This document shows, one piece after another, positions 7 to 33,948 of a stretch of 64,000 nt of DNA. The stretch's first letter is position 1. Each line of letters opens with the position of its first letter. Made by a program: the position numbers and the translations under genes. The notes beneath the pieces are model-generated. The model had not been told where the DNA came from. It made no database searches and saw nothing but the letters and a program-made list of their open reading frames with translations. Source of the stretch: Aquimarina sp. TRL1 (lineage in GTDB: Bacteria > Bacteroidota > Bacteroidia > Flavobacteriales > Flavobacteriaceae); the NCBI RefSeq assembly GCF_013365535.1, contig NZ_CP053590.1, positions 2,098,501 through 2,162,500 of the forward strand. The letters are read 5' to 3'.

Positions 7-3000
7 ATGATGCATGATAATAAGAAATCAAAGACCCCAAATGTTATATCAAGAAAAAAGAATATACCTCCTCTTATAGGGTATATTACGTCTGAAGAAA
101 TAAAAAATATTCAAAGCAAAACAGACAAATTAGGAGAGAGAGGGGTTGGTATTTCCTTTTTCTCTTTTGAACATGTGATTACATCTTCGGATTGGAAGTG
201 TTTAAAAAATAAAGCACAGCAATATGAAATAGATTTGTGTTCACTATTCCTAAATAGTTTGATCCCGATTTTGGAAAGATGGAGTTCCCAAAGCTCTTTT
301 TTAGTTGAAACGTCTATTCTTCCTTCAGAGGAAGATCTCCCATTTGCAGAGCAGGTACTGATTGTTCAAAAAACGCCCTGGATTACGATAACAAAATACA
401 TAGAGGAGCAACTACAGAATGAAATAAGAGCAGTAGATGCAGAAAATGGCATTCCTATTAGTATTAGATCTAATTTGTGGACAATGCCTCAGGTAGAAAA
501 TGATGAAAAAGGTCTTTTGTGTTCGATTGTAGAAAATGATAGAGGAATAACTGTGTGTTGGGAAGTTGATTCTCGTTTTTTCGAAGAGAGAAAGGTACAT
601 GAAATGTTTACTTCATGGATATCTTTACTGGACTGGTTACAAGATGAAGAATGGGAAAAACCATTACCAGATATTTTACCAGTGAACCAACGAGAAGTTA
701 GGAACTCGATAAATAATACCCAGATACCTATTGTAAAAAAGACGTTACATCACGACTTTTTTTTACAACCAACTAGAAATATAGCCTTACAATATTATAA
801 TGAAGAAGGAAATTATGAGCAGTTGACATATGAAGCATTAGCTCATAAAGTACTTTCTCTGGCAGCAACCTTACAAGCCAAAGGGGTAAAAAAAGGAGAT
901 CTTGTAGGAATTACAATTCCCAGAGGTCCCAATCAGATTATAGCCGTAATGGGAATTGTATCAATAGGGGCAGCTTATGTTCCTATTGGGGTTAATCAAC
1001 CGATATCAAGACAGAGAACAATTCACCAAATAGGAGAGATTAAACATGTAGTTGTTACTCCCGAATATGAAGAGAAAATAGGATATCCGGCGATTCAGAC
1101 AATCTCAGTAACAGATTTGAATCATGGGGTATTTGATTTGACATCTGTAGATATATCAACCGATGAATTAGCTTACGTCATTTTTACATCAGGTTCTACA
1201 GGGGCACCCAAAGGAGTAGAAATTACACATGAAGCAGCCTATAATACTATTCAAGATATAAATAAGCGGTTCTTAGTGACAGAAAAAGACAAAGCCCTTG
1301 CCTTATCAGCATTGGATTTTGACTTATCGGTATATGACATTTTTGGATTATTGTCAGTGGGAGGTTCTCTTGTTTTATTATCTGAGCAAACAAGAAGAGA
1401 GGCGACCATTTGGCGGGAGATGATAGAACGACATAAAGTAACTTTATGGAATTCTGTTCCGGCCTTGTTAGAAATGCTATTGATTAGTAATGTAGAAAAA
1501 AGTGAACTGTCTTCGCTGAGATTGGCAATGGTTTCAGGAGACTGGGTTGGTTTAGACCTTTTAGAATGTTTGGAAAAGGTGGCGCCACAAACAAAACTTT
1601 TTGCTTTGGGAGGAGCTACAGAAGCAGCTATTTGGTCCAATGTTTTTCCGGTAACCGAGGTGGCTTCAGGATGGAAATCAATTCCTTATGGAACCCCGCT
1701 GGAGAACCAATGCTACCGGGTAGTAGATTCATTGGGAAGAGATCGTCCCAATGGAGTTCCTGGAGAATTATGGATAGGAGGTAGTGGAGTTGCTAGAGGT
1801 TACTTGGGAAATCCAAAGCTTACAGCTGAACGATTTATTGTAGAAGGGGAGCAACGTTGGTATAGAACAGGAGACTTAGGACGTTATTGGGAAAATGGTA
1901 CTCTGGAGTTTTTAGGGAGAGAAGACCGTCAGGTAAAACTTAGAGGGTATAGAATAGAATTGGGAGAGATAGAAGTAGCGCTCAAAAAAAATGAAGGAAT
2001 CGATCAGGCAATTGCTTCGGTCGTGTCAAGAGAACAGGTACAGCACCTGGTAGCAGCAGTTGTTTCTACTCTTCCACAAGGAACTGTTTCTTCCGAACAA
2101 AAAGGAGTATCTGGTGCAATCCAGAAATTCAGACAAAAAGAAATTACAAAGCAATCAGAAGTAATAGAAATGTTTTTATACCGATTGCTGAAAATAGATA
2201 ATTTATTACTAGAAAAAGAACAATGGAACCCGATCGCTACGCTTGATATTTCTGAAGAACACCATAGAGTAGTACAGATGTGGATGGAGTGGTTATTAAC
2301 TAGGGAATTACTGTATTTAGAAGGCAATTCTTATAAACCCGGAAAAAGATTCTATGAGGTCTACGAAAAGGTATCAGAGAAGCTGACAGAGAAAACAGAA
2401 AACGATTCCTCGTTACTAGTAAAAGTTGGAGCACAGTTAGGAAAAAGAATACTGGATTATAAAGCAATTTTAGCAGGAAAACTAGAAGCAGCTGTTTTAT
2501 TAGATGATGCCGTTTTGTCTCCTGAGTATCTATCCGTAAATGACCCTGGAACTATTAAGGGAATAGATATAATTGCTGAAAAAATTAAGAAATTATCTTT
2601 TTCCAAAAAGAGACCAGTACGGGTGGCTGTATTAGGAGGAAGAACAGGAGTAATGACAGTTCGGTTAGCCAAACAATTAACAGCAGAAGAAATGCATTGC
2701 ACATTACTTGATACCGCTCCTTCAATGATTGCAATGGCAAAACAAAACCTTAGGGAGTTTTCTTCTTATGTAGATTGTCAAAAAATACATAAAAACAATA
2801 TAACCGAAGCGTACCGATACCATTTTGATATTGTTCTAGCGATTAATGCACTGCATAGATATGAATGTATTGATGAAGGGCTTGGACTGGCAACTTTATT
2901 GGTTAATAATGGAGGAAAAATATTAGCATTAGAACATGCGGCATTGAGTCCGATAGCGATGGTGACTTCTTCTATTTTGGATAGAGGGTATGTAGATTTT

Positions 3001-3600
3001 GAATATGAAAGAAAAGTCAGATATAATCCAATGCTGACAGGAAAACAATGGAGTGAGTTTTTTGTGAAAAAAGGGTTGCTAGATGTACAATATGAAGGAA
3101 TTCCTGATTCTTTTACAGAAATAATAGAAGCACAGAGTTCAGAGGATAGAAAACTACTTTTTCCAAACTCGATTTTAGAAGAATTGTCGTGCAAGCTTCC
3201 AGAGCATATGATACCGGAACAAATAGCAATTCTACCTGTCTTTCCATTGACATCTAACGGAAAAATTGACAGGCTGTCTATTGCTGAATCATTTGATTTC
3301 CAGGAAGAAATTTCTATAGAAGAAACCCCTGAAGAAGGTGTGGAAACAGAAATAGCTTCTATGTGGCAGGAACTACTTCAGGTAACTAATATTGGCAGAA
3401 ACCACAGTTTTTTTAAGATTGGAGGTGATAGTTTGTTGGCGACCCGGTTCCTGGCTATGGTAAAGGAACGATATGAGATAGAATTATCACTTAGAGCAAT
3501 GTTTGAAACTCCTGAGCTAAGAGATGTAGCAGCGATCATAAAGGATAAATATTCTGAGCTATGCGAAACAATGGAATTAATGGAAGAAGGGGAGATATGA
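7..3600 (+). CDS. NRPS module: partial Cy - A(Cys) - embedded MT-like - PCP
   Basis: Nonribosomal peptide synthetase predicted to load cysteine. Residues about 25-235 resemble only the C-terminal half of a cyclization domain. The A domain spans about 245-690, with a TSGSTGAPKG loop (394-403), the FDLSVYD A4 motif and the LGRED..RGYRIELGEIE A8 motif. About 340 residues (715-1050) inserted between A8 and A10 (LTSNGKIDR) form a methyltransferase-like domain, as in PchE, PchF and HMWP2. A PCP follows (IGGDSLL, Ser1142). The by-eye specificity code is D-L-Y-N-M-S-L-I, close to the known cysteine code. The glycine-rich SAM loop reads VLGGRTG, so the usual acidic residue and one glycine are changed; methylation or epimerisation are both possible. 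The frame is open to the left edge (two codons without a stop), so the true start and a Cy N-half could lie upstream. The next gene starts inside its stop codon (ATGA). Confidence 0.9.
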   Translation: MMHDNKKSKTPNVISRKKNIPPLIGYITSEEIKNIQSKTDKLGERGVGISFFSFEHVITSSDWKCLKNKAQQYEIDLCSLFLNSLIPILERWSSQSSFLVETSILPSEEDLPFAEQVLIVQKTPWITITKYIEEQLQNEIRAVDAENGIPISIRSNLWTMPQVENDEKGLLCSIVENDRGITVCWEVDSRFFEERKVHEMFTSWISLLDWLQDEEWEKPLPDILPVNQREVRNSINNTQIPIVKKTLHHDFFLQPTRNIALQYYNEEGNYEQLTYEALAHKVLSLAATLQAKGVKKGDLVGITIPRGPNQIIAVMGIVSIGAAYVPIGVNQPISRQRTIHQIGEIKHVVVTPEYEEKIGYPAIQTISVTDLNHGVFDLTSVDISTDELAYVIFTSGSTGAPKGVEITHEAAYNTIQDINKRFLVTEKDKALALSALDFDLSVYDIFGLLSVGGSLVLLSEQTRREATIWREMIERHKVTLWNSVPALLEMLLISNVEKSELSSLRLAMVSGDWVGLDLLECLEKVAPQTKLFALGGATEAAIWSNVFPVTEVASGWKSIPYGTPLENQCYRVVDSLGRDRPNGVPGELWIGGSGVARGYLGNPKLTAERFIVEGEQRWYRTGDLGRYWENGTLEFLGREDRQVKLRGYRIELGEIEVALKKNEGIDQAIASVVSREQVQHLVAAVVSTLPQGTVSSEQKGVSGAIQKFRQKEITKQSEVIEMFLYRLLKIDNLLLEKEQWNPIATLDISEEHHRVVQMWMEWLLTRELLYLEGNSYKPGKRFYEVYEKVSEKLTEKTENDSSLLVKVGAQLGKRILDYKAILAGKLEAAVLLDDAVLSPEYLSVNDPGTIKGIDIIAEKIKKLSFSKKRPVRVAVLGGRTGVMTVRLAKQLTAEEMHCTLLDTAPSMIAMAKQNLREFSSYVDCQKIHKNNITEAYRYHFDIVLAINALHRYECIDEGLGLATLLVNNGGKILALEHAALSPIAMVTSSILDRGYVDFEYERKVRYNPMLTGKQWSEFFVKKGLLDVQYEGIPDSFTEIIEAQSSEDRKLLFPNSILEELSCKLPEHMIPEQIAILPVFPLTSNGKIDRLSIAESFDFQEEISIEETPEEGVETEIASMWQELLQVTNIGRNHSFFKIGGDSLLATRFLAMVKERYEIELSLRAMFETPELRDVAAIIKDKYSELCETMELMEEGEI

Positions 3601-4697
3601 TAGGAGTAATAGGAGGATACGGAGCTGTCGGAATAGCAGCAGTACAGATATTAAAAAAATGGAATAGATATCCATTAAAAATAGGAGGCAGGAATCCTGA
3701 AAAAGCTAGAGAAAAGCTAAAAAAAGAATTCCCGGATGTCAGGTGGTCGTATGTCGATGTCTTTAATGATACTAGTATTGCTGATTTTGCAAAGGATTGT
3801 ATAATCATTGTCAATTGTGTTGGTCCTTCTCATAAGGTGTCTTCCAGAGTAGCAAAAGTATGCTTGTCATTAAATTGTCATTTGGTAGATGCAGGAATTG
3901 ATAAAGTATTGGAGGAGATGAATGCTATCGACGCAGAGACCTGTATCCGATATGGAGCAGGAATGACCCCTGGATTAACCGGAATTTTGCCACAATGGTT
4001 GGCATCAGAATTTGATTCGGTAACTTCATTACAAATGTATACAGGAGCTCTGGATACGTTTACTCCTTCAGGAGCAGAAGATTATCTGGTAGGAGTGTTG
4101 GACACATCAAATGAACCATTGGCAGCATGGAGAGATGGTCAGAAACGACAAACTGCCTCAAAAAGAAAATCTGCAGTACACCTTCCCTTTTTTCCTCGAG
4201 AAGTTTCCGTATTTCCTTTTTTTGATAAAGAATCATTGTTGGTGGCTAATGCGCTAAAGCTTGTAAATGGAGATTGGAGTTTAGTGATCGATGGAGAACA
4301 TGCTCCGGAAGTACTTAATGAAGTTCGGCTACAGTTTGAAAATGACCCTGTGAAAGCAGTAGAGAAGTTATGTATGGCAGCTGCGTTAGACTTAGAAGGT
4401 AGGAAATCATACTGTAATATATTATTACAATTAGACGGACTAAAAGATACTACAGATAAAACAGTAACAGCGTTGTTACAAACGGAGAATGTTTCCCAAT
4501 TAACGGGTACAATAACGGCTCTTGTGAGTATGGCTGTGTTAGAGCAAGAAGTTACCCCGGGAATTGGTCCAGCGGCATCTATTCCCGAACCTCAAAAAAT
4601 AATAAAGCGTTTACAGAACTCAGGGATATTAAAACAATTTATAGTACTAGAAGCATCTATCGAATCTCTATGTGAAGAAGTGGAAGGGGAGATCTAG
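3597..4697 (+). CDS. Saccharopine dehydrogenase-like NAD(P) oxidoreductase
   Basis: A 366-residue oxidoreductase with an N-terminal Rossmann fold of the saccharopine dehydrogenase type: MIGVIGGYGAVG (G6, G9, G12), then a basic IGGRNPEKA stretch that suggests NADP(H). I chose the ATG at 3597 because it overlaps the NRPS stop as ATGA, has GGAAGAAGGGGAG just upstream, and begins directly with the nucleotide-binding strand. A longer in-frame reading from 3561 adds 12 residues that look like antisense of the NRPS tail. Translational coupling to the NRPS implies a tailoring role on the peptide product, for example reduction of a thiazoline, ketone or imine. The substrate cannot be read from sequence. 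A separate Irp3-type thiazolinyl reductase lies just downstream, so the cluster has two candidate reductases. Confidence 0.8.
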   Translation: MIGVIGGYGAVGIAAVQILKKWNRYPLKIGGRNPEKAREKLKKEFPDVRWSYVDVFNDTSIADFAKDCIIIVNCVGPSHKVSSRVAKVCLSLNCHLVDAGIDKVLEEMNAIDAETCIRYGAGMTPGLTGILPQWLASEFDSVTSLQMYTGALDTFTPSGAEDYLVGVLDTSNEPLAAWRDGQKRQTASKRKSAVHLPFFPREVSVFPFFDKESLLVANALKLVNGDWSLVIDGEHAPEVLNEVRLQFENDPVKAVEKLCMAAALDLEGRKSYCNILLQLDGLKDTTDKTVTALLQTENVSQLTGTITALVSMAVLEQEVTPGIGPAASIPEPQKIIKRLQNSGILKQFIVLEASIESLCEEVEGEI

Positions 4698-4804
4698 AAT
4701 TAAGAAATAAGATTTTGATTGTAGATAGGGAGCTTTTTTATCAAATACAATAAAACTATTGGTTTTGATAGAAAAGAGGTCTATTAAATAATAAATAAAA
4801 GTAA

Positions 4805-5914
4805 ATGAAACCTAATAAACTAAAAGCGATTGTTTGTGGTGCTACATTTGGTCAGTTTTATCTGGCATCATTAAAAATATTACAAGATCATTTCGAGGTT
4901 GTTGGTCTGTTATCCAGAGGGAGTGATCGATCTAAAAAATGTGCAAAACAATATGGGGTACCACTATTAACAAGTATTAAAGAAATACCAGATACTGTTG
5001 ATTTAGCCTGTGTGGTTCTAAGATCAGGAGTAATGGGAGGAGAAGGAACAAAACTATCTCTTACCTTATTAGAAAAAGGAATTCATGTGCTCCAGGAGCA
5101 TCCGGTTCATCATAAAGACCTGGCAGCTTGTTTACGGGCAGCTCAAAAGAATAAAGTTCTGTTTAGAACCGGGGATCTTTATATACACCTGCCTGAAGTT
5201 AGACGGTTTATTACTTGTTGTAGAAGTTTGTCAAAACAACAAAAACCAATATATATAGAAGCAGCGTACGCATCGCAAGTGTCATACCCGTTATTACATA
5301 TTTTATCAGAAGCATTGACAACCACCCGTCCCTGGAGTCTGGATCAAGTTTCAAAAACAAAAGGACCTTTTCAGGTGCTAACTGGAGTAGTAGGAGGAGT
5401 TCCGTTGATCTTAAGAGTTCATAACGAAGTAAATCCTAATGATCCAGATAATCATTTGCATTTATTACATCGGATTACCATTGGTTTTGAAGGAGGGAGT
5501 TTATCATTAACGGATACGCATGGACCAGTCGTCTGGAATCCAAGAATGCACGTCCCGGAAGATGTTGGTACGATGAAAGAATTATCAGAAGCGGAAGCCT
5601 CTTTCCTTACTGCTAATAGTGTAGAAATATTAGGAAAACATACACCATTAAGCTACAGGGAGATATTAACCAAACAATGGCCTGCTGCTATCGGAGTTGA
5701 TTTATTAGAAATTAAGGAAGGAATTGTCACGGGAACAAAATTTCAGACTAAATCACAAAATGAACTGCTAATTTCCAAACAGTGGCAGGATATAACAAAC
5801 ATGTTGGGGTATCCTTCTATGGTACCAAATAGTGTACACCAGCCTTTATCTGTATCGACCATATTAGAAGCAGGAGAAGAAAAGAGTCAGGCAGAACTTT
5901 TGTATGAAAGGTAG
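4805..5914 (+). CDS. Thiazolinyl imine reductase (Irp3/PchG/YbtU type)
   Basis: A 369-residue Gfo/Idh/MocA-fold reductase. The N-terminus IVCGATFGQFYL (9-20) is the signature of thiazolinyl imine reductases of yersiniabactin and pyochelin synthesis. The EKP motif of sugar dehydrogenases is replaced by QEHPVHH (97-103), also typical of this group. These enzymes use NADPH to reduce a carrier-bound thiazoline to a thiazolidine during assembly. Its presence beside cysteine-specific modules with Cy domains is strong evidence that the product contains at least one thiazolidine. About 107 bases separate it from the gene upstream, and no obvious terminator is seen there, so it is probably co-transcribed. 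Assignment to the family is confident; which ring is reduced is unknown. Confidence 0.88.
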   Translation: MKPNKLKAIVCGATFGQFYLASLKILQDHFEVVGLLSRGSDRSKKCAKQYGVPLLTSIKEIPDTVDLACVVLRSGVMGGEGTKLSLTLLEKGIHVLQEHPVHHKDLAACLRAAQKNKVLFRTGDLYIHLPEVRRFITCCRSLSKQQKPIYIEAAYASQVSYPLLHILSEALTTTRPWSLDQVSKTKGPFQVLTGVVGGVPLILRVHNEVNPNDPDNHLHLLHRITIGFEGGSLSLTDTHGPVVWNPRMHVPEDVGTMKELSEAEASFLTANSVEILGKHTPLSYREILTKQWPAAIGVDLLEIKEGIVTGTKFQTKSQNELLISKQWQDITNMLGYPSMVPNSVHQPLSVSTILEAGEEKSQAELLYER

Positions 5915-5987
5915 TGTTAGACATTACTACAGCAGAAGTATTCTGTCGGATTGGATCATATACCCTATATAATAAAGAATAATAATT

Positions 5988-6701
5988 ATGTTACAATGTA
6001 GTCACATCCTTTGCAAAGTAGATAATATCCATAAACTAGTAGAAGATTATACAAAATTAGGTTTCTCTCTAATTTGGGGAAGCCGGAAAGAAAAAGCACA
6101 TAATGCCTTGCTGTGGTTTGAAGAGGGACCTTATATAGAATTCTTTCAGCTGCCCAAAAAATTTGAGGTCTTAAGTTACCCTTTAAAGATGTTTTACGGT
6201 CGGGGAGCAGGGGATAGATGGACTAAATGGTCTAAAAGCCCTGAGGGGTGGTGCGATATGGCTTTGGAGAGTCAAGAAACAATACTTGCTACTTCTTTTA
6301 TGCCTCCAGTTGATTTAAAAGCCATAAAAAAAGAGATGGATAAGACAGGAGTTCGCTCTTCCAGAATAATAAAAAACAAAAGAGTTAGCCCGGAAGGAGT
6401 AAAAATAAAGTACAGTATTTTTTGTCCAAATGCAACAGGATTTCCTTTTGTTTTTTCTGGATATGATTCCCCTCAAAAACCTGAAAAAATCAAACACCCA
6501 AATGGAGCTACGAAGATCAATTGGGTTAAGATGGGTGTCGATAGTACATATACTGAAGAATTTCACCATTTGATAAGAACAACTCCTTTTATCAAAACCA
6601 TACCAGATACAGAGACGAAAGTTTTTGAAGTTGGGCTAACAGGGTTGCGAAATGAATTAGACCCTCAATTATTACACGGAGCAGTATTTAAAACCTCTTG
6701 A
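5988..6701 (+). CDS. Glyoxalase-like (VOC superfamily) protein
   Basis: A 237-residue protein that looks like the Glyoxalase_3 branch of the vicinal-oxygen-chelate superfamily. It begins LQCSHILCKVDNIHKLVEDYTKLGFSL, with an N-terminal His and an amphipathic first helix typical of these folds, followed by ALLWFEEGPYIEFFQL, which supplies a Glu at the usual metal-ligand position. VOC proteins act as metal-dependent lyases, isomerases and dioxygenases, or as binding proteins that sequester a thiazole drug (bleomycin resistance type). In this cluster it could tailor or bind the thiazoline product, but no function can be assigned. The stop codon overlaps a TTG that could in principle start the next gene; I prefer a later ATG for that gene. 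Confidence 0.6.
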   Translation: MLQCSHILCKVDNIHKLVEDYTKLGFSLIWGSRKEKAHNALLWFEEGPYIEFFQLPKKFEVLSYPLKMFYGRGAGDRWTKWSKSPEGWCDMALESQETILATSFMPPVDLKAIKKEMDKTGVRSSRIIKNKRVSPEGVKIKYSIFCPNATGFPFVFSGYDSPQKPEKIKHPNGATKINWVKMGVDSTYTEEFHHLIRTTPFIKTIPDTETKVFEVGLTGLRNELDPQLLHGAVFKTS

Positions 6702-6745
6702 CTTTCTTTCCAAAACAAATACATTTTTTAAACGCACATCAAGCC

Positions 6746-11110: not shown

Positions 11111-11123
11111 ACAAACCATACAA

Positions 11124-12677: not shown

Positions 12678-13436
12678 TTATTCAATAACGTTTGCTTGTA
12701 ACAATGTTTGAAGAAGGGCGATATAATTTTTGCCTAACTGTTGGACAAAAAAATGATCTCCGGCGAATTCTTGGATGTCAAACTCTCCGGTGGTAACCTC
12801 TTTCCAATGCACCATAATTTCTTTAGTTGCGTCTTTATCTTTATTGGCAGCGTGCGCTACAATAGAAGCAGTAATTTTTTGGTTTTTATAAGTAAAACTT
12901 TCATGAAGTCTTAAGTCTCCCCGTATCATTGGAAGTAAGAATTGGATCATTTCCTTATTTTCCAGTATTTCTTTAGGCGTTCCGTTTAATACTTTTAATT
13001 CCTCAATCAGCTTCTCATCATTGAGCCAACTATGCAAGGTAGAAGGATCAGGCATATGTGGGGCATGTCTTCCCGCAATAATAATCTTGTCAGGTGATAA
13101 CTGATGATGATGTTCTAATTGATATGCCAGTTCGAATGCAATAGCTCCCCCCATACTATGACCAAAAAAGTAAAAAGGAATAGTAGGAGTAATAAAAGGA
13201 AGAATGATGGTAACCAGCTCCGGTATCAATATGGAAAAATCCTCAATAAGGGGATCCATAATTCTAGTACCTCTGCCAGGGAGTTCGATAGGAATAAAAG
13301 ACACAGAAGTATCTGATAGTGCCCAATCTTTATAAGCGGTTGCACTTCCTCCTGCATAATGAAAACAGAAGACATTGACAGAAGCAGTTTTCGTATCCGG
13401 GATTCCATAAGGGAACCATTTTGCTATATTTTTCAC
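12678..13436 (-). CDS. Type II thioesterase (YbtT/PchC-like editing enzyme)
   Basis: A 252-residue alpha/beta hydrolase of the type II (external) thioesterase family. It shows FCFHYAGGSATAYKDW (the early oxyanion region), the nucleophile motif GHSMGG (Ser94) and GDHFF (His228). Such enzymes clear misprimed or stalled acyl groups from carrier proteins of PKS and NRPS lines; YbtT and PchC do this in yersiniabactin and pyochelin synthesis. It is the last gene of the leftward block, 26 bases after the giant PKS-NRPS gene, so it is almost certainly part of that transcript. Unlike the integrated TE of the terminal NRPS, it keeps a normal serine nucleophile. Confidence 0.88.
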   Translation of the reverse strand: MKNIAKWFPYGIPDTKTASVNVFCFHYAGGSATAYKDWALSDTSVSFIPIELPGRGTRIMDPLIEDFSILIPELVTIILPFITPTIPFYFFGHSMGGAIAFELAYQLEHHHQLSPDKIIIAGRHAPHMPDPSTLHSWLNDEKLIEELKVLNGTPKEILENKEMIQFLLPMIRGDLRLHESFTYKNQKITASIVAHAANKDKDATKEIMVHWKEVTTGEFDIQEFAGDHFFVQQLGKNYIALLQTLLQANVIE

Positions 13437-22084: not shown

Positions 22085-22086
22085 AA

Positions 22087-24189: not shown

Positions 24190-24300
24190 GAGTAGTATTA
24201 TTTTGTTTTTGAAATGAAATGACCATGTAGCTTTTTAATAAAAAGTAGCATCAGGATAGCAGTCATTTTTGTGTGAAAAATTTATGCGATCATATCAATT

Positions 24301-24337: not shown

Positions 24338-24361
24338 CTCTATAGGTTGTTTTTTTATGCG

Positions 24362-27300: not shown

Positions 27301-27652
27301 GACCTGTTCCGAGGATGAGGTTGGTTGATAGAGCTGCCAGGAAACGTCCTAGAAAAAAAGATTTTTCGTTGATCGGCATAGTGTATAAAATACCGGCACT
27401 TTTATGCTGAATGTCTTTAAAGAGTACTCCACCAGTGACTATGGCTACAATAATGATCATAATCATACCGCCTCCGGCAAAATTCTTATAAAAGAGCGCA
27501 GCCCCATTCATCAACGTAGCTTCATTAGCATAATAAGTATATGCCCCCTGAGTAAACCAAATAGATTGAAAAATCATCAATAGAAAAAAGAACCATGAGA
27601 TAGGTTTTTTCCATCTGGTTTTAGTTTCGAATTTTAAAATTTTAGCGATCAT
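24362..27652 (-). CDS. ABC-2 type permease fused to a degenerate M1 peptidase-like domain
   Basis: A 1096-residue protein. The first half has two sets of about six membrane segments, starting with ISWFFFLLMIFQSIWFTQGAY and including GGVLFKDIQHKSAGILYTMPI, as in ABC-2 family permeases. After about residue 560 comes a long soluble part resembling M1 aminopeptidases. The position where HExxH would lie reads ASQLIRQW (about 936-943), so both zinc-binding His are missing, while EALALQ recalls the later Glu helix. The domain is therefore unlikely to be catalytic. Fusions of permease and M1-like domain are known in Bacteroidetes. The ATPase gene upstream overlaps its start by 4 bases, so the two form one transporter, possibly for export or uptake of the cluster product. 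Confidence 0.8.
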   Translation of the reverse strand: MIAKILKFETKTRWKKPISWFFFLLMIFQSIWFTQGAYTYYANEATLMNGAALFYKNFAGGGMIMIIIVAIVTGGVLFKDIQHKSAGILYTMPINEKSFFLGRFLAALSTNLILGTGLFVGMLLVPYSGIGSADKFGPTPWGQMLEGFFLLTVPNLFLLTVACFAALVFFRKMAAGYLGIFVVAILFMVTETIRPNTPYTTFLQLLDPFGYGYTTEILDTLPATAKNTTYLPLTYMYFIHKAIWTGGAILLLIISYKKFSFKYFIKALSPKAKKNIVPDTETTSFSSDIGVPEVQLFFSAKEFIKKLSRLAVLEFKNVIRPVNFKVIMIMVALMFFLQNLVWNPTYYLGAQLPTTASMTLTRITTGAAIMILLMIWSVELFFKDKTSNIWQITDALPVPVWVSQFSKYLAMCGVAFILSVTIILCGILAQVAKGGWEHIDLWLYAEDLLGYKWGWLTYVLNISFAFFIAGLTGNRFATHVLTVGYYLFNLISVEFDIIEEIRYTYTLTPGVEDFSEISGYGIWNLASNWFFLLWATLAIIFVLLGIHFWRRGKAFDFKRKITFRTNQLNIYGKGAVLLMVIAFISLQSFIVSEVNEKGNFQPEEVLNSQAASYEKKYKRILSEPQPKITHAELDIALYPEERKAISKAALTLTNDCNHSIDTVYLSMAPFTTIKKLLWNHSPIKISKKDEELRMYAIPLSIDTAASGVLSVYSQKEYSGFTQKGENPQPELLFNGSFFSIREIIPTIGYDVHRELKKNRERIEHQLPRVENRMPSIENAIAMQQDVFAPDAKWLTGKIQLSTSKTQFAVAPGKLVKTWNDQQRSHYMYEITEPTPFAWYISSSEQEQLQFRTHDVDVSILHHKKHHYNLIHYQEAIDNTLDFINTQLGNYPYSENRMVEIPFYQEKQYSYANTIATSEKEGWIADIQEIPEQSYLTFLTASQLIRQWVYRNIHIANVQGADMLQTALPEALALQIVLEKHGAEGVHSILEKKYNAYIKERGNDPNTEIPLLYTDGAPYLAQNKGTLVLYKMMKKMGADTFTLVVKNSIRQFRDTPVPFTALYRRFLVNLSKEDQIEIKKDIETVQEIPALLYDKAI

Positions 27653-28557
27653 AAGGCAGGAGTGGGGATTGGTTCTTTCGTGTTGTTTTTCTTGTTTGAT
27701 AGTGTTTGGAAATACACATCTTCCAATGTAGGCTCTTTAGCTGTAAATTGGCTGTCAGGAGGGTATGGAGAAATAACTGTGATAACCATTTTACCCAAAT
27801 GTAATCGGGTAGAGATAACATTCATACTTTTTTCATAAGAAGCTAATTCTTCTTTGTTAATTTTTTTCTCCCAAACATGTCCGATTAATCTACTGGAAAT
27901 TTCTTCCGGGTTTCCATGTAATAATACTTTTCCTTTTCCAATAATTGCCATCTGATTACAGAGGGTACTGACATCTTCTACAATATGTGTGGAGAGGATA
28001 ACGACAATATGTTCTCCAATTTCTGACAAGAGGTTATAAAACCGATTGCGTTCCATAGGATCCAGACCAGCTGTAGGCTCGTCAACAATAATTAATTTTG
28101 GATCCCCTAATAATGCCTGAGCAATGCCGAAACGTTGTTTCATTCCTCCAGAGTATCCTCCTAGTTTTTTATTTCGTACATCCCATAAGTTGACCTTCTT
28201 TAATAAGCTTTCTACTTGCTGATTTCTTTGAGATACATTGGTGATTCCTTTCATGTCTGCTATATGAAGCAAGAGTTCATAAGCTGTTGAAGATGGGTAT
28301 ACTCCGAATTCCTGAGGTAGATATCCTAATACTTTTCTCAGTTCTTCAGGGTGTTCTTGAATATCAATATCATTAAAGCATATATGCCCTTGATCAGGGT
28401 TTTGAAGTGTTGCTATGGTTCGCATTAGCGTTGACTTTCCTGCTCCGTTTTGTCCCAAAAGACCAAACATGCCTTTGTCTATTTTTAAGGACACATTTTG
28501 TAAGGCTTGCACTCCGTTGGGGTATGTTTTGCTGAGGTTTTTTATTTCGAGTTGCAT
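27649..28557 (-). CDS. ABC transporter ATP-binding protein
   Basis: A 302-residue ABC ATPase. It has the Walker A GQNGAGKS (about 35-42), a Q-loop at YLPQEFGVYP, the signature YSGGMKQR, the Walker B LIIVDEPTAGLD and the switch His in ILSTHIVEDV. It resembles the CcmA/NatA-type subunits that partner ABC-2 permeases. Its stop overlaps the start of the permease-M1 fusion by 4 bases, which couples their translation. It is the first gene of the leftward block that continues to the FAAL and PKS-NRPS genes. A role in product or metal transport is inferred from position only. Confidence 0.9.
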   Translation of the reverse strand: MQLEIKNLSKTYPNGVQALQNVSLKIDKGMFGLLGQNGAGKSTLMRTIATLQNPDQGHICFNDIDIQEHPEELRKVLGYLPQEFGVYPSSTAYELLLHIADMKGITNVSQRNQQVESLLKKVNLWDVRNKKLGGYSGGMKQRFGIAQALLGDPKLIIVDEPTAGLDPMERNRFYNLLSEIGEHIVVILSTHIVEDVSTLCNQMAIIGKGKVLLHGNPEEISSRLIGHVWEKKINKEELASYEKSMNVISTRLHLGKMVITVISPYPPDSQFTAKEPTLEDVYFQTLSNKKNNTKEPIPTPAL

Positions 28558-29109: not shown

Positions 29110-30111
29110 ATGGGACTGAAATTGCACTATAAAGATTTGGAGGAGATTACCTTTAACTCAGGTAATGTCAATTACTTAATAGATATTGCAGGCACAAAAG
29201 AGTATGATCATTCTTTTGAATATAGAGGAGTAAAAGGGTCTTTTAAAGAGATTGTTTTAGAGAATTTCAGGATTGGATATGGATGCAGTTATTTAGATAA
29301 AAAGACGACTTTATTATTTGATTTTGAAAATGAAACGGTAGAAATGCACTTTTCATTAAATGGAGATACAAAAACGAGTATGGATAGCATGCATCGGGAT
29401 TTTTCATTCTGTAGTAATGAACACAATATATTTTACTGTAGTAATTCCAGAGGTTCCTTTCAGATGTGCTCTAAGCATTCACATATTTTTGAAGTCAATT
29501 TAAATCCTGATTTTTTTACAAAGTACCTTCCAAAAGACGAAATGTTTGATAGCTTTAAGGAGTTGATTAAAAATCATCAGGCAGGATTTATGAGCAATCA
29601 TAACTATCCCATAACTCCAGAGATGCATTTTATCATTAGGGAGATTATAAAGTGTCAGTGGAAGGGACATTACAGAAAGCTGTTTCTGGAAGCAAAAGTA
29701 TTAGAATTGTTAATGCTGCAAATGAAACAGATACAAGAGATAAGTGAGAGAGGAACAATTGTAACTGATCCGGTTGATATTGAACGAATGACAGTGGCAA
29801 AGGAAGTGATCACGAATCGATTAAGTGATCCCCTGACATTATCCGATCTGGCGAAACAGGTAGGAACCAATGAGTGTGCCTTGAAGAAAGGCTTTAAGAA
29901 AGTTTTTGGGACAACGGTTTTTGGTTATATTCAGGATGCCAAAATGAACAATGCCAAAAAATTACTATTAGAGCAAAAAATGTCTATTAACCAAGTGGCA
30001 GACATTACAGGATATAAAAACCCACAGCATTTTTCTACAGCTTTTAAAAAGAAGTTTGGAATTCCTCCAAGTTATTTAAAAGAAGGAAAATGTACTTCCA
30101 AAGTTTTCTAA
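29110..30111 (+). CDS. AraC-family transcriptional regulator (PchR/YbtA-like role)
   Basis: A 333-residue regulator with a divergent N-terminal sensing domain and a C-terminal AraC double helix-turn-helix. The first helix is at LTLSDLAKQVGTNECALKKGFKKVFG and the second around INQVADITGYKNPQHFSTAFKKKFGIPPSYL (last about 100 residues). I chose ATG 29110, preceded by AAAGGAATAATT; an in-frame TTG at 29023 would add 29 residues without family support. In pyochelin and yersiniabactin systems an AraC regulator (PchR, YbtA) binds the ferric siderophore and activates synthesis and receptor genes. The position between the biosynthetic block and a TonB receptor fits this. The effector is inferred. Confidence 0.87.
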   Translation: MGLKLHYKDLEEITFNSGNVNYLIDIAGTKEYDHSFEYRGVKGSFKEIVLENFRIGYGCSYLDKKTTLLFDFENETVEMHFSLNGDTKTSMDSMHRDFSFCSNEHNIFYCSNSRGSFQMCSKHSHIFEVNLNPDFFTKYLPKDEMFDSFKELIKNHQAGFMSNHNYPITPEMHFIIREIIKCQWKGHYRKLFLEAKVLELLMLQMKQIQEISERGTIVTDPVDIERMTVAKEVITNRLSDPLTLSDLAKQVGTNECALKKGFKKVFGTTVFGYIQDAKMNNAKKLLLEQKMSINQVADITGYKNPQHFSTAFKKKFGIPPSYLKEGKCTSKVF

Positions 30112-30133
30112 TTAATGTGGTTTATCCGTTAAG

Positions 30134-30162
30134 AATTCCGTCTAACGTAGTTTTAATTCCGT
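30134..30162 (+). promoter_or_regulatory. Direct repeats AATTCCGT, 21-bp period, upstream of TonB receptor
   Basis: AATTCCGT occurs at 30134-30141 and 30155-30162, start to start 21 bp, which is two helical turns. The extended match is AATTCCGTnTAnnG. A further partial copy (ATCCGTTAAG) lies at 30124-30133. AraC-family activators commonly bind tandem direct repeats with this spacing, so this is a candidate site for the regulator encoded immediately upstream, controlling the receptor gene about 100 bases downstream. Confidence 0.5.
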
Positions 30163-30259
30163 ATACAGTAGATAAGGGCTAATTGCTTCCATATACATTT
30201 GCTTTTGTCTTTTATTTATTAATAAGCGTAAATAAGGGGGCTTTTAGAATATTTCTCGA

Positions 30260-32620
30260 ATGAAACTTTTAGTCAATTTGCTAGTACTAGGAATAGTACT
30301 GTATTGTCAGAACATTTATACCCAATATCAGATTTCAGGAACGATAACCACTAGCTCTGGAGCTCCTGTATCAGATGCTTCTGTTTACATAAAAAACTCA
30401 AATAACGGTACGGTTTCCAATAGTCATGGAACATATGCTTTAGAATTACAATCTGATAAAGATATTGTACTCATAGTTTCGAATCTCGGTTTTGTAACTC
30501 AGGAAAAGAAGATTACTATAGAACAAGTTTCGACTGTGGTTGATTTTGCTTTGGAAGAAGATGTTGCTCACTTAAATGAAGTAACTATTGCAGGAAAGAG
30601 CAAAGCACAGTTATTGAGAGAGACGGTCTATAAACCAGAAGTTATTAATGTAGAGAGTTTACAGATAAAATCAACACCAGTAGCCGATATTATCGGACAG
30701 ATATCAGGGGTCAAAGTTCGACAACAAGGAGGGTTGGGTAGTGAAGCCAATGTAATGATTAATGGAATATCTGGAAAAGGAATTCGTACGTTTATAGATG
30801 GTATTCCTGTGGATTATCTAGGTGACAGTTTCGAGTTGAGGAATATGTCTTCTGATATGATTAAGAGTATTGAAATTTATAAGAATGTTATTCCGGTTTC
30901 GTTTGGTTCTGATATTTTGGGAGGGGTGGTTAATATTGTTACCAAAAACAGATACCAGAACTATATAGAGGCATCCTATAGTTATGGTTCGTGGAATACA
31001 CATTTAGGAAATATAAGTGTCAAAAGAAGATTAGGAAAAAAAGGAAATCAGTTTTTGCAGGCAGATGCGGTGATTAATCATTCCGATAATTCATATTGGA
31101 TGGAAGAGATCGAAGTGCCGATAGATGAACTAAATAATACGGCAATAGGGAGAGCAAAACGGTTTCACGATACATATACCAGTACTTTTGGAAGGGTACA
31201 ATATGGTACTGAAAATGTTCCCTGGGCAGATGATTTTAGAGTGGGGATTTCTGTGTCAGAGATTAATAAGGAATTCCAACATGGAATTAGTGCAATTACT
31301 CCCTGGGGAGGTGTGGAAAATACAAATACTTCATATAATGGATTGCTTTCCTGGAAGAAAAAAATATGGAAAGACAGACTTACCTCAGATGTTATTTTAG
31401 GAATTAATAAGGTCAAAGAACAATTTATCGATACTCTGGCGAGAACTTATTATTGGGATGGGAGCTATGTCCCTAAAAGTACCAGAGGAGAAAGTGGTCT
31501 CTATGTAAATGGGAGAACCCCTGAACTCGATAGGGACAATGTTTTTGTCCGCTTAGGAATGAACTACGAATTGCATGAAAACCATCAGGTAAATCTCACT
31601 TCGTTGATTTCATACGAAGAAGTGTCCGGAGAAGATAAGGCTGGAGCCGCTACATTTACTCAGGATATTTTTAAAACACCTCAGGAATTAACTAAAGTAT
31701 TTACGGGGATTTCTCTGGAAAGTACTTTTTTGGATGGAAAAATCACGAATAATATTTCTGCAAAATATTATTTTGGGAAAAGCTTTGCTGTTTCCCTAAA
31801 AGAAGATAATACTCTGGATCAATTCATAAAGAGCAAGCAAGAGACCTTAGGGTATGGGAATGTTTTAAAATACGAAATAACTCCTGCTTTTACAGGGTTT
31901 TTAGGATATGAATATGCGATTCGTATTCCCGATAGCGAAGAGATTTTTGGAGATGGGCTTATCATCGGACCTAATGCCAATCTGAAAATGGAACAAAGTC
32001 ACAATGCGAATGCAGGAATCCAGTGGAAAGGGATGGAAGATAAAGTCCAATTATCAGTAAATGGATTTTTTAGAAAAACAGAGAATCAAATATTTCTGAA
32101 TGCAATTAGCTCCGGGATTTCTGCATACCTTAATCTTTTTAATACCAAAACAATCGGGGTAGAAGGGACATTCACACTCTTTCCTATTAAGAATACATCT
32201 GTTTATGCAAATCTAACCTGGCAGAAAGTTACATTGAATGGGGTAGATGATTATGGAATAGTGGAAAGCAGACATATAGGGTCCAGAATCCCGAACACTC
32301 CTTATCTTTTTGGAAACCTTGGAGCAGATTATCAATTCCGTCATGCTTTTCAAAAAAATGATGCTTTCCATATAAGCTATCAAAACAATTTTGTAGAGGA
32401 ATTCTTTTTGTCCTGGGAGAACGACGGACTAGATGAAACTAAAGCGATTATTCCCAGACAGTTTGTTCATAATGCTTCTATAGGGTATACATTTCCTGAA
32501 AAAAAATATAGCCTGAGTCTGGAATGCAGAAATGTATCAGATGAATTGGTCTATGACAATTATAAAGTTCAAAAACCAGGGAGAAGCTTTTATGTAAAAT
32601 TTCGAGTTTTTCTCCAATAA
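30260..32620 (+). CDS. TonB-dependent outer-membrane receptor (siderophore type)
   Basis: A 786-residue outer-membrane receptor. A signal peptide (about 1-21) precedes a carboxypeptidase-regulatory-like beta domain (about 24-105), then the plug (about 115-230, with IIGQISGVKVRQQGG, VMINGISGKGIRTFIDGIPV and GVVNIVTK) and a beta-barrel ending in the aromatic strand SFYVKFRVFLQ. The length and lack of a SusD partner fit a siderophore receptor and not a SusC. It lies between the AraC regulator and a DUF4374 lipoprotein and is likely to take up the metal complex of the cluster's product. The gene downstream starts 29 bases after its stop, so the two form an operon. Confidence 0.9.
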   Translation: MKLLVNLLVLGIVLYCQNIYTQYQISGTITTSSGAPVSDASVYIKNSNNGTVSNSHGTYALELQSDKDIVLIVSNLGFVTQEKKITIEQVSTVVDFALEEDVAHLNEVTIAGKSKAQLLRETVYKPEVINVESLQIKSTPVADIIGQISGVKVRQQGGLGSEANVMINGISGKGIRTFIDGIPVDYLGDSFELRNMSSDMIKSIEIYKNVIPVSFGSDILGGVVNIVTKNRYQNYIEASYSYGSWNTHLGNISVKRRLGKKGNQFLQADAVINHSDNSYWMEEIEVPIDELNNTAIGRAKRFHDTYTSTFGRVQYGTENVPWADDFRVGISVSEINKEFQHGISAITPWGGVENTNTSYNGLLSWKKKIWKDRLTSDVILGINKVKEQFIDTLARTYYWDGSYVPKSTRGESGLYVNGRTPELDRDNVFVRLGMNYELHENHQVNLTSLISYEEVSGEDKAGAATFTQDIFKTPQELTKVFTGISLESTFLDGKITNNISAKYYFGKSFAVSLKEDNTLDQFIKSKQETLGYGNVLKYEITPAFTGFLGYEYAIRIPDSEEIFGDGLIIGPNANLKMEQSHNANAGIQWKGMEDKVQLSVNGFFRKTENQIFLNAISSGISAYLNLFNTKTIGVEGTFTLFPIKNTSVYANLTWQKVTLNGVDDYGIVESRHIGSRIPNTPYLFGNLGADYQFRHAFQKNDAFHISYQNNFVEEFFLSWENDGLDETKAIIPRQFVHNASIGYTFPEKKYSLSLECRNVSDELVYDNYKVQKPGRSFYVKFRVFLQ

Positions 32621-32649
32621 AGAATCTAGTTAAACCAAAATAATAAGAC

Positions 32650-33948
32650 ATGAAAACAATAATAAAAAACATCCTGTTACTCGCATTGACAGGAATATTA
32701 ATTAGCTCATGTAGCAGTGATGATGACAGCTCATCAGATACTCCGGTAGTGAAAGATGATCCGTATACACTCCTTACCAGAGTACAAACTGGAAGTTCGG
32801 TAAATTATAATTTTTATTTACAAAGTATATCGGATTTAGACAAAGAACTTTCTTTTACGAATGAAAAAGCCGTAGAGGCTATGGCAGGAGGAGCTGCTGG
32901 AGTGTATTTATTTGATAATAAATTGTACATCAATGAATATGCTACTTCAAAAAGTATAACGAAGTGGAGTAAGAATGATAAGGGAGTATATGTAAGTGAC
33001 GGGGCTATTAGTACCAAAGAAATTGGTTTTGCAGGAAATCCTTATTTCCTGGATAAAAATACGGCTTTTGTAGGAGGATCATCGGCAAGTAAAATTTTGA
33101 TCTTTAATCCGTCTACAATGACGAAAACAGGAGTTATTGATTTTAGTAATCATTCGAGATTAAATGAACTGACAGATTTTCCATCTGCAGGAGGTAAGGT
33201 TAATATTGAAACAGTTACTGAGATGGTAGTAAGAGATAATCACTTGTTTGTCGGGGTGTTTTTATTAAATGAAATGCAGGCATTTACACCTGCAAGTTTG
33301 TCTTCTGATATCCTGGTTATTGATCTTAATAAAGTAGATGTTGCGGGAACTGATAATTCGGCTGCAGTTGTTAAATGGATTAGTGACGACAGAGGTGTAG
33401 GAGTAGGTTCCTGGAATTCAGGATCTGGATCTTCTTTTATGACAGTTGACGAAAAAGGAGATATCTACCTATTAGCACATAATATGTGGGGAGGAGCTAG
33501 AGCATCTGGAGTTTCCAGTAAACCAGCTTGTGTTCTCCGAATCAAAAAAGGAAGCCTGGATTTTGACAAGGAATATTACTTTGATGTAGAAGCTGTTAGT
33601 AAAGGAGATGGGAATTCAGTGGTCAATATGGAATATGCTGGAAATGGAATCTTCTTTGCAACTTCAAATGACAATTCAGCAATTAATCCAGATGATCCAT
33701 ATTCTTTTTATCTCGATCCTATTGCACAATGGTACCAGTTTAATTTATATGATAAAACAGCAAAGCAGGTAAATGATACCTATACGAAAGGGGCTTGGGC
33801 AAGTAAAATATTATTTGACCAAAACAAGGCATATATTCCATATCAAAATAAAACAGAATCTTACTTTCTAGAGGTTGATATGACCTCTATGAAAAGTAAC
33901 AAAAAATTCTCGACGGTAGGAGCTCCGATCCTGTTCAAATCGAACTAG
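32650..33948 (+). CDS. DUF4374-like surface lipoprotein (XusB-like siderophore capture)
   Basis: A 432-residue lipoprotein. The signal peptide ends in a lipobox with Cys21 (LISSC), followed at once by SSDDDSSSD, an acidic tail similar to the surface-export signal of Bacteroidetes lipoproteins. The mature part has repeating beta-rich segments that suggest a propeller, and I recognise it as the DUF4374 type. As I recall, XusB of Bacteroides, which holds ferric siderophores at the cell surface beside the XusA receptor, belongs to this family. Here too it sits directly behind a TonB receptor. Binding of the cluster's own product is the simplest reading; the ligand is inferred. A strong terminator follows. 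Confidence 0.75.
   Translation: MKTIIKNILLLALTGILISSCSSDDDSSSDTPVVKDDPYTLLTRVQTGSSVNYNFYLQSISDLDKELSFTNEKAVEAMAGGAAGVYLFDNKLYINEYATSKSITKWSKNDKGVYVSDGAISTKEIGFAGNPYFLDKNTAFVGGSSASKILIFNPSTMTKTGVIDFSNHSRLNELTDFPSAGGKVNIETVTEMVVRDNHLFVGVFLLNEMQAFTPASLSSDILVIDLNKVDVAGTDNSAAVVKWISDDRGVGVGSWNSGSGSSFMTVDEKGDIYLLAHNMWGGARASGVSSKPACVLRIKKGSLDFDKEYYFDVEAVSKGDGNSVVNMEYAGNGIFFATSNDNSAINPDDPYSFYLDPIAQWYQFNLYDKTAKQVNDTYTKGAWASKILFDQNKAYIPYQNKTESYFLEVDMTSMKSNKKFSTVGAPILFKSN

What the first reader, a model, noticed from the sequence alone, without database searches (positions are those of the whole stretch)
7..33948. Lipid-primed thiazoline metallophore cluster with its own regulator, export and uptake
The cluster combines a FAAL-ACP starter, one KS-AT-ACP extension without reductive domains, three cysteine-type A domains, three Cy domains, an Irp3-type reductase and a type II TE. 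It is followed by an AraC regulator, a TonB receptor and a DUF4374 lipoprotein. This is the pyochelin/yersiniabactin logic, but no salicylate genes are present. The predicted product is a 3-oxo-fatty-acyl chain on a row of three cysteine-derived heterocycles, one reduced. A beta-keto (enol) thiazoline could take the metal-binding place of the phenol. I know of no described flavobacterial compound of this type.
Basis: partly seen in the sequence, partly recalled or inferred. Interest (0 to 1): 0.88.

Follow-up and report, generated by a model that had tools for sequence, protein, structure and literature searches.

The report
Lipid-headed thiazoline metal-scavenger gene cluster
A marine Aquimarina-type bacterium carries a gene cluster that very probably builds a fatty, sulfur-ring metal-scavenging molecule related to pyochelin and sorangibactin but with a lipid head instead of the usual salicylate, next to genes that look able to take the metal complex back up; the compound itself has not been shown.

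Summary
In detail: FAAL-ACP, a KS-AT-ACP module without reductive domains, three complete Cy domains, three Cys-coded A domains, an Irp3 reductase, type II TE, AraC, TonB receptor and a DUF4374 lipoprotein. The genome has no salicylate synthase over cut-off. The DUF4374 protein matches XusB, the siderophore-capturing lipoprotein of Bacteroides. One operator-like element precedes both the NRPS1 and the TonB-XusB operon. By contig match the genus is Aquimarina; the cluster lies behind tRNA-Leu(CAA). FAAL/PKS/tris-cysteine relatives occur in Pelosinus, Paenibacillus, Cohnella and Clostridium; Flavobacterium and Chryseobacterium have a longer-PKS version. Best reading: a new variant of the thiazol(id)ine metallophores with a beta-ketoacyl lipid in place of the aryl cap. 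Product, metal and enol-thiazoline ligand are inferred. Ten searches of open-licence papers listed no described product of this architecture.

The parts
7..3600 (+). NRPS1: C-lobe remnant of a Cy domain (about 7-711), cysteine A domain (775-1806), MT-like insert (Pfam match 2632-2919), PCP (3349-3537)
   Evidence: Pfam; hhalign of the N-terminus to Cy3, probability 99.5%; A code DLYNMSLIW
3597..4697 (+). SDH-like oxidoreductase, same Pfam class as sorangibactin SrbE; homologue of the gene directly behind PchF in P. protegens (PchK position); first ATG of the open frame at 3561, homologues begin at 3597
   Evidence: PF03435; 50 homologous 90%-identity clusters, own included; alignment; 76 of 80 kept loci of this family hold a Cy3-like condensation domain (tblastn 1e-10, ordinary C domains may be among them)
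4805..5914 (+). Irp3/PchG-type thiazolinyl imine reductase
   Evidence: TIGR01761 301.9 bits over cut-off 188.8; PDB YbtU/Irp3 E=1e-39
5988..6701 (+). Glyoxalase_3/VOC protein (same class as sorangibactin SrbJ)
   Evidence: PF13468 E=6e-14; SrbJ described in PMC10127202
6698..11110 (+). NRPS2: TubC_N docking, Cy3 (ExxxxD), cysteine A, PCP, TE with active-site Cys (GYCMGG)
   Evidence: Pfam; A code DLYNLSLIW; TE motif; Cy motif
11124..12503 (+). MATE exporter
   Evidence: PF01554 E=4.5e-30
12678..13436 (-). type II thioesterase
   Evidence: PF00975 E=2.5e-39
13463..22084 (-). PKS-NRPS: KS-AT-ACP-Cy1-A1-PCP-(Ox remnant)-TubC_N-Cy2; no KR, DH or ER match
   Evidence: Pfam; KS Cys, AT GHSTGE and HAAH motifs; A1 code DLYNISMIW
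14975..15487 (-). SagB/BmdC-like oxidase domain, FMN-binding residues lost
   Evidence: TIGR03605 E=2.5e-9, 36.9 bits, cut-off 78.4; PDB BmdC E=5e-7; motif loss
22087..24189 (-). FAAL-ACP (fatty acyl starter)
   Evidence: Pfam; best NCBIfam hit a fatty-acid-AMP ligase family; the 25 hits shown are all below their cut-offs
24362..27652 (-). large membrane protein, probably ABC permease with a C-terminal extracytoplasmic part; overlaps the ATPase gene by 4 bases
   Evidence: ABC2_membrane_4 only at E=0.09; gene order
27649..28557 (-). ABC transporter ATPase
   Evidence: PF00005 E=1.8e-33
29110..30111 (+). AraC-family regulator (open frame listed from TTG 29023)
   Evidence: PF12833; ATG 29110 behind AAAGGA
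30145..30177 (+). operator-like element upstream of TonB; its twin lies left of the window (window -158 to -126) upstream of NRPS1
30260..32620 (+). TonB-dependent outer-membrane receptor
   Evidence: PF00593/PF07715; NF038079 MxcH-type siderophore receptor 463 bits, cut-off 925
32650..33948 (+). XusB-like (DUF4374) lipoprotein, lipobox Cys 21 followed by an acidic/serine stretch
   Evidence: PDB 9hqe XusB E=2.3e-10; sequence; Cys 21 invariant in 29 rows

Best explanation
A biosynthesis-and-uptake locus for a lipid-headed thiazol(id)ine metallophore. FAAL activates a fatty acid onto its ACP; KS-AT-ACP adds one malonyl unit and leaves the beta-keto group; Cy1-A1-PCP makes the first cysteine thiazoline, which stays a thiazoline because the oxidase domain has decayed; Cy2 (C-terminus of the PKS-NRPS) works with A2-(MT-like)-PCP of NRPS1 across a split module; Cy3-A3-PCP-TE of NRPS2 makes the third ring and releases the chain; Irp3 and probably the SDH-like protein reduce one or two rings; the MT-like insert N-methylates or epimerises ring 2. 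MATE and/or the ABC pair export it; the metal complex is captured by the XusB-like lipoprotein and imported through the TonB receptor; the AraC protein probably switches the NRPS1 and TonB operons on through a shared operator. Shown: gene content, domain order, A-domain codes, XusB homology, shared promoter element, cross-phylum conservation. Inferred: number of extensions, chain length, redox state and methylation of each ring, export, the metal, and the beta-keto(enol)-thiazoline ligand.
For: Domain calls; three Cys codes, two identical to P. protegens PchE and PchF (68); AT malonyl-type motif and intact KS Cys (98); no salicylate synthase over cut-off in the genome; Ox FMN residues lost (84, with PMC8795117 in 125). 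XusB match in the PDB (19), XusB being described as siderophore-capturing in PMC13142918. A 33-bp element upstream of NRPS1 and of TonB, no third copy in the 5.4 Mb genome at up to 3 mismatches; 19 of its 22 fixed letters stand upstream of A. aquimarini NRPS1, and a shortened form matches there without mismatch. Same PKS-NRPS architecture in Aquimarina sp. I32.4 and Pelosinus fermentans and, without an Ox hit, in Paenibacillus, Cohnella and C. beijerinckii, each with FAAL in front. An unnamed assembly has PKS-NRPS, SDH-like and XusB homologues with one and the same longest-contig length, 5241564. Uptake genes beside relatives: of 80 loci 3 showed a TonB hit at 1e-4; those three were annotated and confirmed: TonB, Trep_Strep, ABC ATPase, CbiQ and AraC in Pelosinus, TonB in a Selenomonadales MAG and in Flavobacterium poyangense. 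Deletion of srbE/F/G, of srbI and of srbJ each abolished sorangibactin A (PMC10127202).
Against: No product is known. The A. aquimarini cluster has the tail operon without FAAL/PKS in its neighbourhood, and that genome shows no close PKS-NRPS homologue elsewhere (best KS-AT match 36%; 23, 30, 32), so the tail might work with another head or be a remnant. A XusB homologue was found in only 1 of 52 Aquimarina-genus genomes, the own one, at E<=1e-30, although the protein database names homologues from A. aquimarini and A. muelleri; none of the 80 loci holds a XusB hit and 77 show no TonB hit within the flanks, many being from monoderm hosts. The two-site motif match alone is modest: 53 of 2000 shuffle pairs reach it. 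The shortened motif with 1 mismatch also hits three other genomes of the genus, with no AraC, TonB or cluster gene within the 14 kb fetched around each, and the reversed control hits 1 of 52. The promoter region of the PKS-NRPS operon does not carry the element (13 of 22 at best, 78). TE chemistry is open: Cys at the active site also occurs in P. protegens PchF (62).
Confidence: 0.68

Rival explanations
1. Iterative-PKS reading: the KS-AT-ACP works several times on the fatty acyl starter and makes an alkylresorcylic (or alkylsalicylic) ring, as in micacocidin/massiliachelin, so the head is a phenol and the product a member of that known class.
For: Massiliachelin and micacocidin assembly lines also use FAAL, ACP, KS and AT ahead of Cys modules (figure legends; FAAL fused to the PKS in micacocidin, PMC11837247 passage; the exact domain order is recalled).
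Against: Those lines carry a KR, this one has none and no dehydratase match. In Chryseobacterium the homologous KS (61%) is a lone KS placed behind a KS-DH-KR-ACP protein, i.e. it seems to take a finished chain in ordinary modular order. No KS phylogeny with iterative references was made.
Confidence: 0.12
2. The molecule is not a metallophore but an antibiotic or signal; the TonB-XusB-AraC genes are neighbours by chance or serve a xenosiderophore.
For: XusB homologues are described as parts of xenosiderophore systems. The two biosynthetic operons are convergent and the PKS promoter lacks the shared element. MATE and ABC genes would fit antibiotic export. Most related loci show no TonB hit in their flanks.
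Against: Shared element at the NRPS1 and TonB promoters, conserved at A. aquimarini NRPS1; TonB neighbours in Pelosinus, Selenomonadales and Flavobacterium relatives; the enzyme set is that of known metallophores.
Confidence: 0.12
3. Sorangibactin-type end group: the Cys-TE adds homocysteine (thiolactone) to the chain, giving lipid-(thiazoline)-(thiazolidine)2-homocysteine thiolactone. This is a refinement rather than an opponent of the best explanation.
For: Same classes of trans-acting enzymes (SDH-like, Irp3, VOC) and a TE with Cys in place of Ser.
Against: Among the 55 TE hits with the motif aligned, 42 have Cys, P. protegens PchF included, 12 have Ser, among them Pelosinus, Cohnella and C. 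beijerinckii of the lipid group, and 1 is misaligned, so Cys does not mark the homocysteine tag. The trans methyltransferases and the P450 of sorangibactin are absent.
Confidence: 0.3

Closest known systems
Sorangibactin / anthrochelin (coelibactin-like) clusters
   Same: Cy/Cys-A NRPS with Irp3 (SrbI), saccharopine-dehydrogenase-like SrbE and glyoxalase-like SrbJ, TE with active-site Cys; contiguous heterocycles
   Different: No salicylate synthase, no P450, no trans MTs; instead FAAL-ACP and KS-AT-ACP supply a lipid head. PMC10127202: passages and section 7 seen; the anthrochelin paper is not held
Pyochelin / enantio-pyochelin and yersiniabactin
   Same: Cys codes identical to P. protegens PchE and PchF, Irp3/PchG-type reductase, a homologue of the gene behind PchF, AraC plus TonB receptor
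   Different: Three Cys modules split over three proteins, lipid/PKS starter, XusB-like lipoprotein
Micacocidin / massiliachelin
   Same: FAAL, ACP, KS and AT ahead of Cy/Cys modules and a thiazolinyl imide reductase (legends seen; order recalled)
   Different: Those have a KR and make an alkylsalicylate; this one has no KR
XusAB xenosiderophore uptake (Bacteroides)
   Same: TonB receptor followed by a DUF4374 lipoprotein
   Different: Here it sits beside a biosynthetic cluster, i.e. it probably serves a self-made compound; no PepSY match in the neighbours scanned
Karamomycin-like BGC of Sporomusa termitida (predicted in PMC12971057, passages)
   Same: Thiazol(id)ine NRPS and oxidoreductases with a non-salicylate head; a S. 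termitida protein belongs to the SDH-like family, whether from that very cluster was not checked
   Different: Naphthoate (menaquinone-derived) head instead of a lipid

Membership tests
Thiazol(id)ine NRP metallophores (pyochelin/yersiniabactin kind) | Cy domains paired with cysteine-specific A domains | tested here: met
   3 complete Cy with (D/E)xxxxD, 3 Cys-type codes
Thiazol(id)ine NRP metallophores (pyochelin/yersiniabactin kind) | trans-acting thiazolinyl imine reductase | tested here: met
   TIGR01761 over cut-off
Thiazol(id)ine NRP metallophores (pyochelin/yersiniabactin kind) | aryl acid (salicylate) starter | tested here: not met
   no TIGR03494 match over cut-off in the genome; FAAL-ACP instead
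Thiazol(id)ine NRP metallophores (pyochelin/yersiniabactin kind) | product binds metal and is taken up | not testable with these tools
   only gene context: TonB, XusB-like, AraC, shared element
Sorangibactin/coelibactin-type clusters | SrbE-like, SrbI-like and SrbJ-like genes with the NRPS | tested here: met
   same Pfam/NCBIfam classes; 13 of 80 SDH-family loci hold SDH, Irp3 and VOC hits together. No direct alignment to Srb proteins was possible
Sorangibactin/coelibactin-type clusters | P450, trans methyltransferases and salicyl starter | tested here: not met
   no such match among the 14 proteins of 7-33948
Micacocidin/massiliachelin | FAAL-primed PKS with KR making an alkylsalicylate | tested here: not met
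   FAAL and KS-AT present, no KR
XusAB-type uptake | DUF4374 lipoprotein next to a TonB receptor | tested here: met
XusAB-type uptake | beta-propeller fold and siderophore site | not tested
SagB/BmdC thiazoline oxidase | FMN-binding R-x-S-x-R and GG-YP motifs | tested here: not met
   lost in the window domain, kept in the Chryseobacterium/Flavobacterium rows

The most novel reading that the evidence does not exclude
A new class of bacterial metal chelator: a beta-keto(enol)-thiazoline lipid takes the place of the phenol-thiazoline of pyochelin/yersiniabactin. It is made by a cluster family shared between Bacteroidota and Bacillota that chelator-pathway mining rules do not see, and in Aquimarina it is recovered by a XusAB-type receptor serving a self-made compound rather than a stolen one.
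Probability: 0.4. Interest if true: 0.78.

Novelty: new variant of a known kind. Interest (0 to 1): 0.62.

Why it matters
A survey of 59,851 genomes gives no Bacteroidota row in its table of phyla with detected NRP metallophores and leaves out chelators made by the NRPS/PKS core itself because they could not be detected without many false positives (PMC12971057, passages). This locus is a concrete, testable case of that blind spot, with the same front end in Bacillota. (Other kinds of siderophore, made without NRPS, are known from flavobacteria; recalled.) If true, it adds a phenol-free lipid chelating head and gives XusB-type lipoproteins a second role, in recovering a self-made metallophore. 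Pelosinus fermentans JBW45, whose complete genome carries a homologous cluster, offers a second organism for the test.

Tried and rejected
Close relatives of NRPS2 in genome contigs: the first scan found none; the second, with an alignment of the SDH-like family, gave 113 relatives of which 80 loci were kept. Plasmid collection: no near DNA match for 7-12500, the only part given; protein matches of P0003 in 1049 records, all under 60% identity. Thiazole formation at ring 1: rejected because the Ox domain has lost its FMN residues. The Cys-TE as a mark of a homocysteine tag: rejected, since P. protegens PchF has it too. Extra operator copies in three other genomes of the genus: no AraC, TonB or cluster gene found within the 14 kb fetched around each. 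The right flank (sigma factor, MscS, HupE, deaminase, protease, ribonucleotide reductase) is ordinary and not part of the locus. MT versus epimerase for the insert in NRPS1: not settled; SAM motif I reads GGR(T/S)G in 7 of 8 NRPS1 orthologues and EGRRG in the eighth; of four further rows S. ovata reads GTRAG, two did not align and PchF was not extracted. Structure of the XusB-like protein: the job never finished. Literature for a described product: ten searches, open-licence PMC papers only.
Full report
OBSERVATION. The window is contig position 2098501-2162500 of a 5.41 Mb genome. The locus consists of a + operon (NRPS1, SDH-like, Irp3, VOC, NRPS2, MATE), a convergent - operon (ABC ATPase, permease-like protein, FAAL-ACP, PKS-NRPS, type II TE) and a right-hand + group (AraC, TonB, XusB-like). 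Downstream genes from 34.3 kb are ordinary. The A-domain codes are DLYNISMIW, DLYNMSLIW and DLYNLSLIW; the last two equal those of P. protegens PchE and PchF taken from a fetched locus in the same alignment. That such codes stand for cysteine is recalled, supported here by the pyochelin yardstick. Salicylate synthase TIGR03494 has three sub-threshold matches in the genome and none over cut-off.

ANATOMY BEYOND THE FINDING. The PKS-NRPS reads KS-AT-ACP-Cy1-A1-PCP-X-TubC_N-Cy2. X matches SagB (TIGR03605, E=2.5e-9, below cut-off) and the bacillamide oxidase BmdC (E=5e-7). BmdC holds FMN with Arg145, Arg146, Ser147 and Arg149 (PMC8795117, passages). In an alignment of homologues the corresponding motif (RKSYR) and the GG-YP motif are kept in the Chryseobacterium/Flavobacterium rows, partly lost in Pelosinus and Sporomusa, and lost in the window, in Aquimarina sp. 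I32.4 (P0009) and in an unnamed close relative (P0010). Ring 1 should therefore remain a thiazoline. NRPS1 begins with a stretch that aligns to the C-lobe of Cy3 (hhalign probability 99.5%, 8 orthologues on each side, one Cy3 row short) without the catalytic acidic motif, so its working Cy is probably Cy2 at the C-terminus of the PKS-NRPS: a split module. Its MT-like insert passes the Pfam gathering score (35.3 bits, cut-off 30); motif I is GGR(T/S)G in 7 of 8 orthologues; N-methylation or epimerisation cannot be told apart. Cy3 has E in place of the first D, as in a number of relatives.

SECOND REDUCTASE AND VOC. The SDH-like protein has 50 homologous 90%-identity clusters, own included, by a word-based search of 5.8 billion proteins; a scan of named genomes reached further: 113 relatives, 80 kept. 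Of those 80 loci, 76 hold a Cy3-like condensation domain (tblastn 1e-10; ordinary C domains may be counted), 45 an Irp3 homologue and 13 SDH, Irp3 and VOC together. In P. protegens the homologue directly follows the PchF gene, the place of PchK (name recalled). In sorangibactin biosynthesis deletion of srbE/F/G (SrbE is saccharopine-dehydrogenase-like), of srbI (Irp3-like) and of srbJ (VOC) each abolished sorangibactin A (PMC10127202, section 7 read). Hence the tail half of the window has the gene classes of sorangibactin-type loci, while the head is different.

RELATIVES. Proteins with the same domains and about the same length as the PKS-NRPS occur in Aquimarina sp. I32.4 (55% over residues 2130-2873), an unnamed 5.24 Mb contig (54%), Pelosinus fermentans (44%) and Sporomusa sphaeroides (43%). 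FAAL followed by this PKS-NRPS, with A-MT-PCP, SDH, Irp3 and Cy-A-TE upstream, was mapped in Pelosinus, Paenibacillus arenosi, Cohnella phaseoli and Clostridium beijerinckii; a FAAL of 40% identity or more shows in these 4 of the 80 loci. Flavobacterium poyangense and Chryseobacterium vrystaatense have FAAL and two KS-bearing proteins before ACP-Cy1-A1-PCP-Ox-TubC-Cy2; in Chryseobacterium these are FAAL-AcylCoA-dehydrogenase-ACP, KS-DH-KR-ACP and a lone KS. FAAL matches at E<=1e-60 were found in 6 of 11 genomes examined. For a tree of the SDH family 37 of the 80 loci and the window were given; 36 rows were used, two (Paenibacillus, Pelosinus) fell out because the script met a stop codon upstream of the gene start. 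The window and A. aquimarini pair (100/99) inside a starred 18-row set of Bacteroidota, Bacillota, Desulfobacter and an Aerophobetes MAG. In the genus, 2 of 52 genomes show close NRPS2 homologues, own and A. aquimarini (65% and 59% in two pieces); in the other 50 no listed match exceeds 35% (capped list). TIGR01761 passes its cut-off in 1 of 395 genomes of the order sample, the own one, and in 1 of 14 controls (A. aquimarini is not among the genomes listed there).

METALLOPHORE EVIDENCE. The lipoprotein matches XusB. [quoted passage not shown] A 33-bp element lies at -158 to -126 of the window (upstream of NRPS1) and at 30145-30177 (upstream of TonB). The pattern was drawn from these two sites, so their two matches are by construction; a third copy is absent from the genome at up to 3 mismatches, control 0. 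The pair alone agrees in 23 of 33 letters, reached by 53 of 2000 shuffles; the independent support is 19 of 22 fixed letters upstream of A. aquimarini NRPS1 and a perfect match of a shortened pattern there. At one mismatch that shortened pattern also hits three other genomes in unrelated surroundings, and the reversed control hits one. ACGTAG recurs at 21-bp spacing in both NRPS1 copies, a spacing usual for AraC-type half sites (recalled). Of 80 loci only 3 show a TonB hit at 1e-4; ten flank proteins of these three were annotated, giving TonB receptors in each, plus Trep_Strep, CbiQ, ABC ATPase and AraC in Pelosinus. Against: XusB is found in 1 of 52 genomes of the genus at E<=1e-30 and in none of the 80 loci, though the protein database names homologues from A. 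aquimarini and A. muelleri; and A. aquimarini's cluster lacks the FAAL/PKS half nearby.

SITE. A tRNA-Leu(CAA) lies 358-442 bp upstream of the window start, behind a prs gene that is present in 50 of 52 genomes of the genus. tRNA-Leu(CAA) stands beside prs in 6 of 6 other genomes examined; none of the 11 right-flank proteins tested was found in the 8 kb behind it, and the open frames there differ in layout. This suggests a variable site and horizontal arrival; no att repeat was sought.

MECHANISM AND LIMITS. See Best explanation. Shown by sequence: domains, order, codes, loss of Ox residues, conservation, shared element. Inferred: one (not several) malonyl extension, ring redox states, methylation, TE chemistry, export, metal. 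The iterative, aromatic alternative is disfavoured by the absent KR and by the placement of the homologous KS in Chryseobacterium; no KS tree was made.

NOVELTY. A mining survey leaves out chelators made by the NRPS/PKS core, and its table has no Bacteroidota row in the passages I saw; the word stem 'bacteroid' does not occur in its main text (PMC12971057). My ten paper searches in the open-licence PMC library listed no described product of this architecture; the anthrochelin and leptochelin papers are not held and were not read. Other papers (PMC11934131, PMC10291242, PMC6604713, PMC12210259, PMC11877528, PMC11837247, PMC3672683) were seen in passages only, the first also in its abstract. New variant of a known kind; interest 0.62.

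Noticed in passing
window 7-711 (NRPS1 N-terminus) and orthologues in L041-L057: A C-lobe-only Cy remnant is conserved at the start of NRPS1 in the 8 orthologues aligned (Aquimarina, Flavobacterium, Bacillota) although the full Cy2 sits on another protein; it may be a docking or scaffolding half-domain.
   Followed up: partly
window 14975-15487: A decayed FMN oxidase domain is kept in place within the PKS-NRPS of the window, Aquimarina sp. I32.4 and an unnamed relative, while Chryseobacterium/Flavobacterium keep the motifs and Paenibacillus, Cohnella and C. beijerinckii show no match.
   Followed up: yes
L046:5-4229: In Pelosinus fermentans the related cluster is flanked by Trep_Strep, a two-domain ABC ATPase and CbiQ (ECF-type importer set) plus a TonB receptor: a possible importer for this metallophore class.
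   Followed up: partly
L130 (Chryseobacterium vrystaatense): FAAL fused to an acyl-CoA dehydrogenase and ACP, then a KS-DH-KR-ACP and a lone KS without AT, ahead of the Cys modules: a longer, probably unsaturated lipid head.
   Followed up: partly
L009:19559-19643 (window -442 to -358): tRNA-Leu(CAA) directly left of the cluster; the open frames behind this tRNA differ between the genomes of the genus examined, suggesting an insertion hotspot.
   Followed up: partly
G000:C1:1167590-1186327 and 371670-427265: The same genome holds further large NRPS/PKS clusters, with open frames up to 7092 aa; not studied.
   Followed up: no
window 58230-62548: A SusC/SusD-like pair (TonB receptor and SusD_RagB) lies further right, apparently unrelated.
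   Followed up: no
L023:6499-7638 (A. aquimarini): A Cys/Met PLP enzyme adjoins the MATE gene of the A. aquimarini cluster; it could concern cysteine or homocysteine supply.
   Followed up: no
L062 and L064 (Microbulbifer), near 15.7-16.7 kb: The window's ABC ATPase (45-46%) and permease-like protein (19%) have neighbours-in-pair beside an Irp3 homologue in two Microbulbifer thiazoline-type loci, which hints that the pair belongs to such clusters.
   Followed up: no
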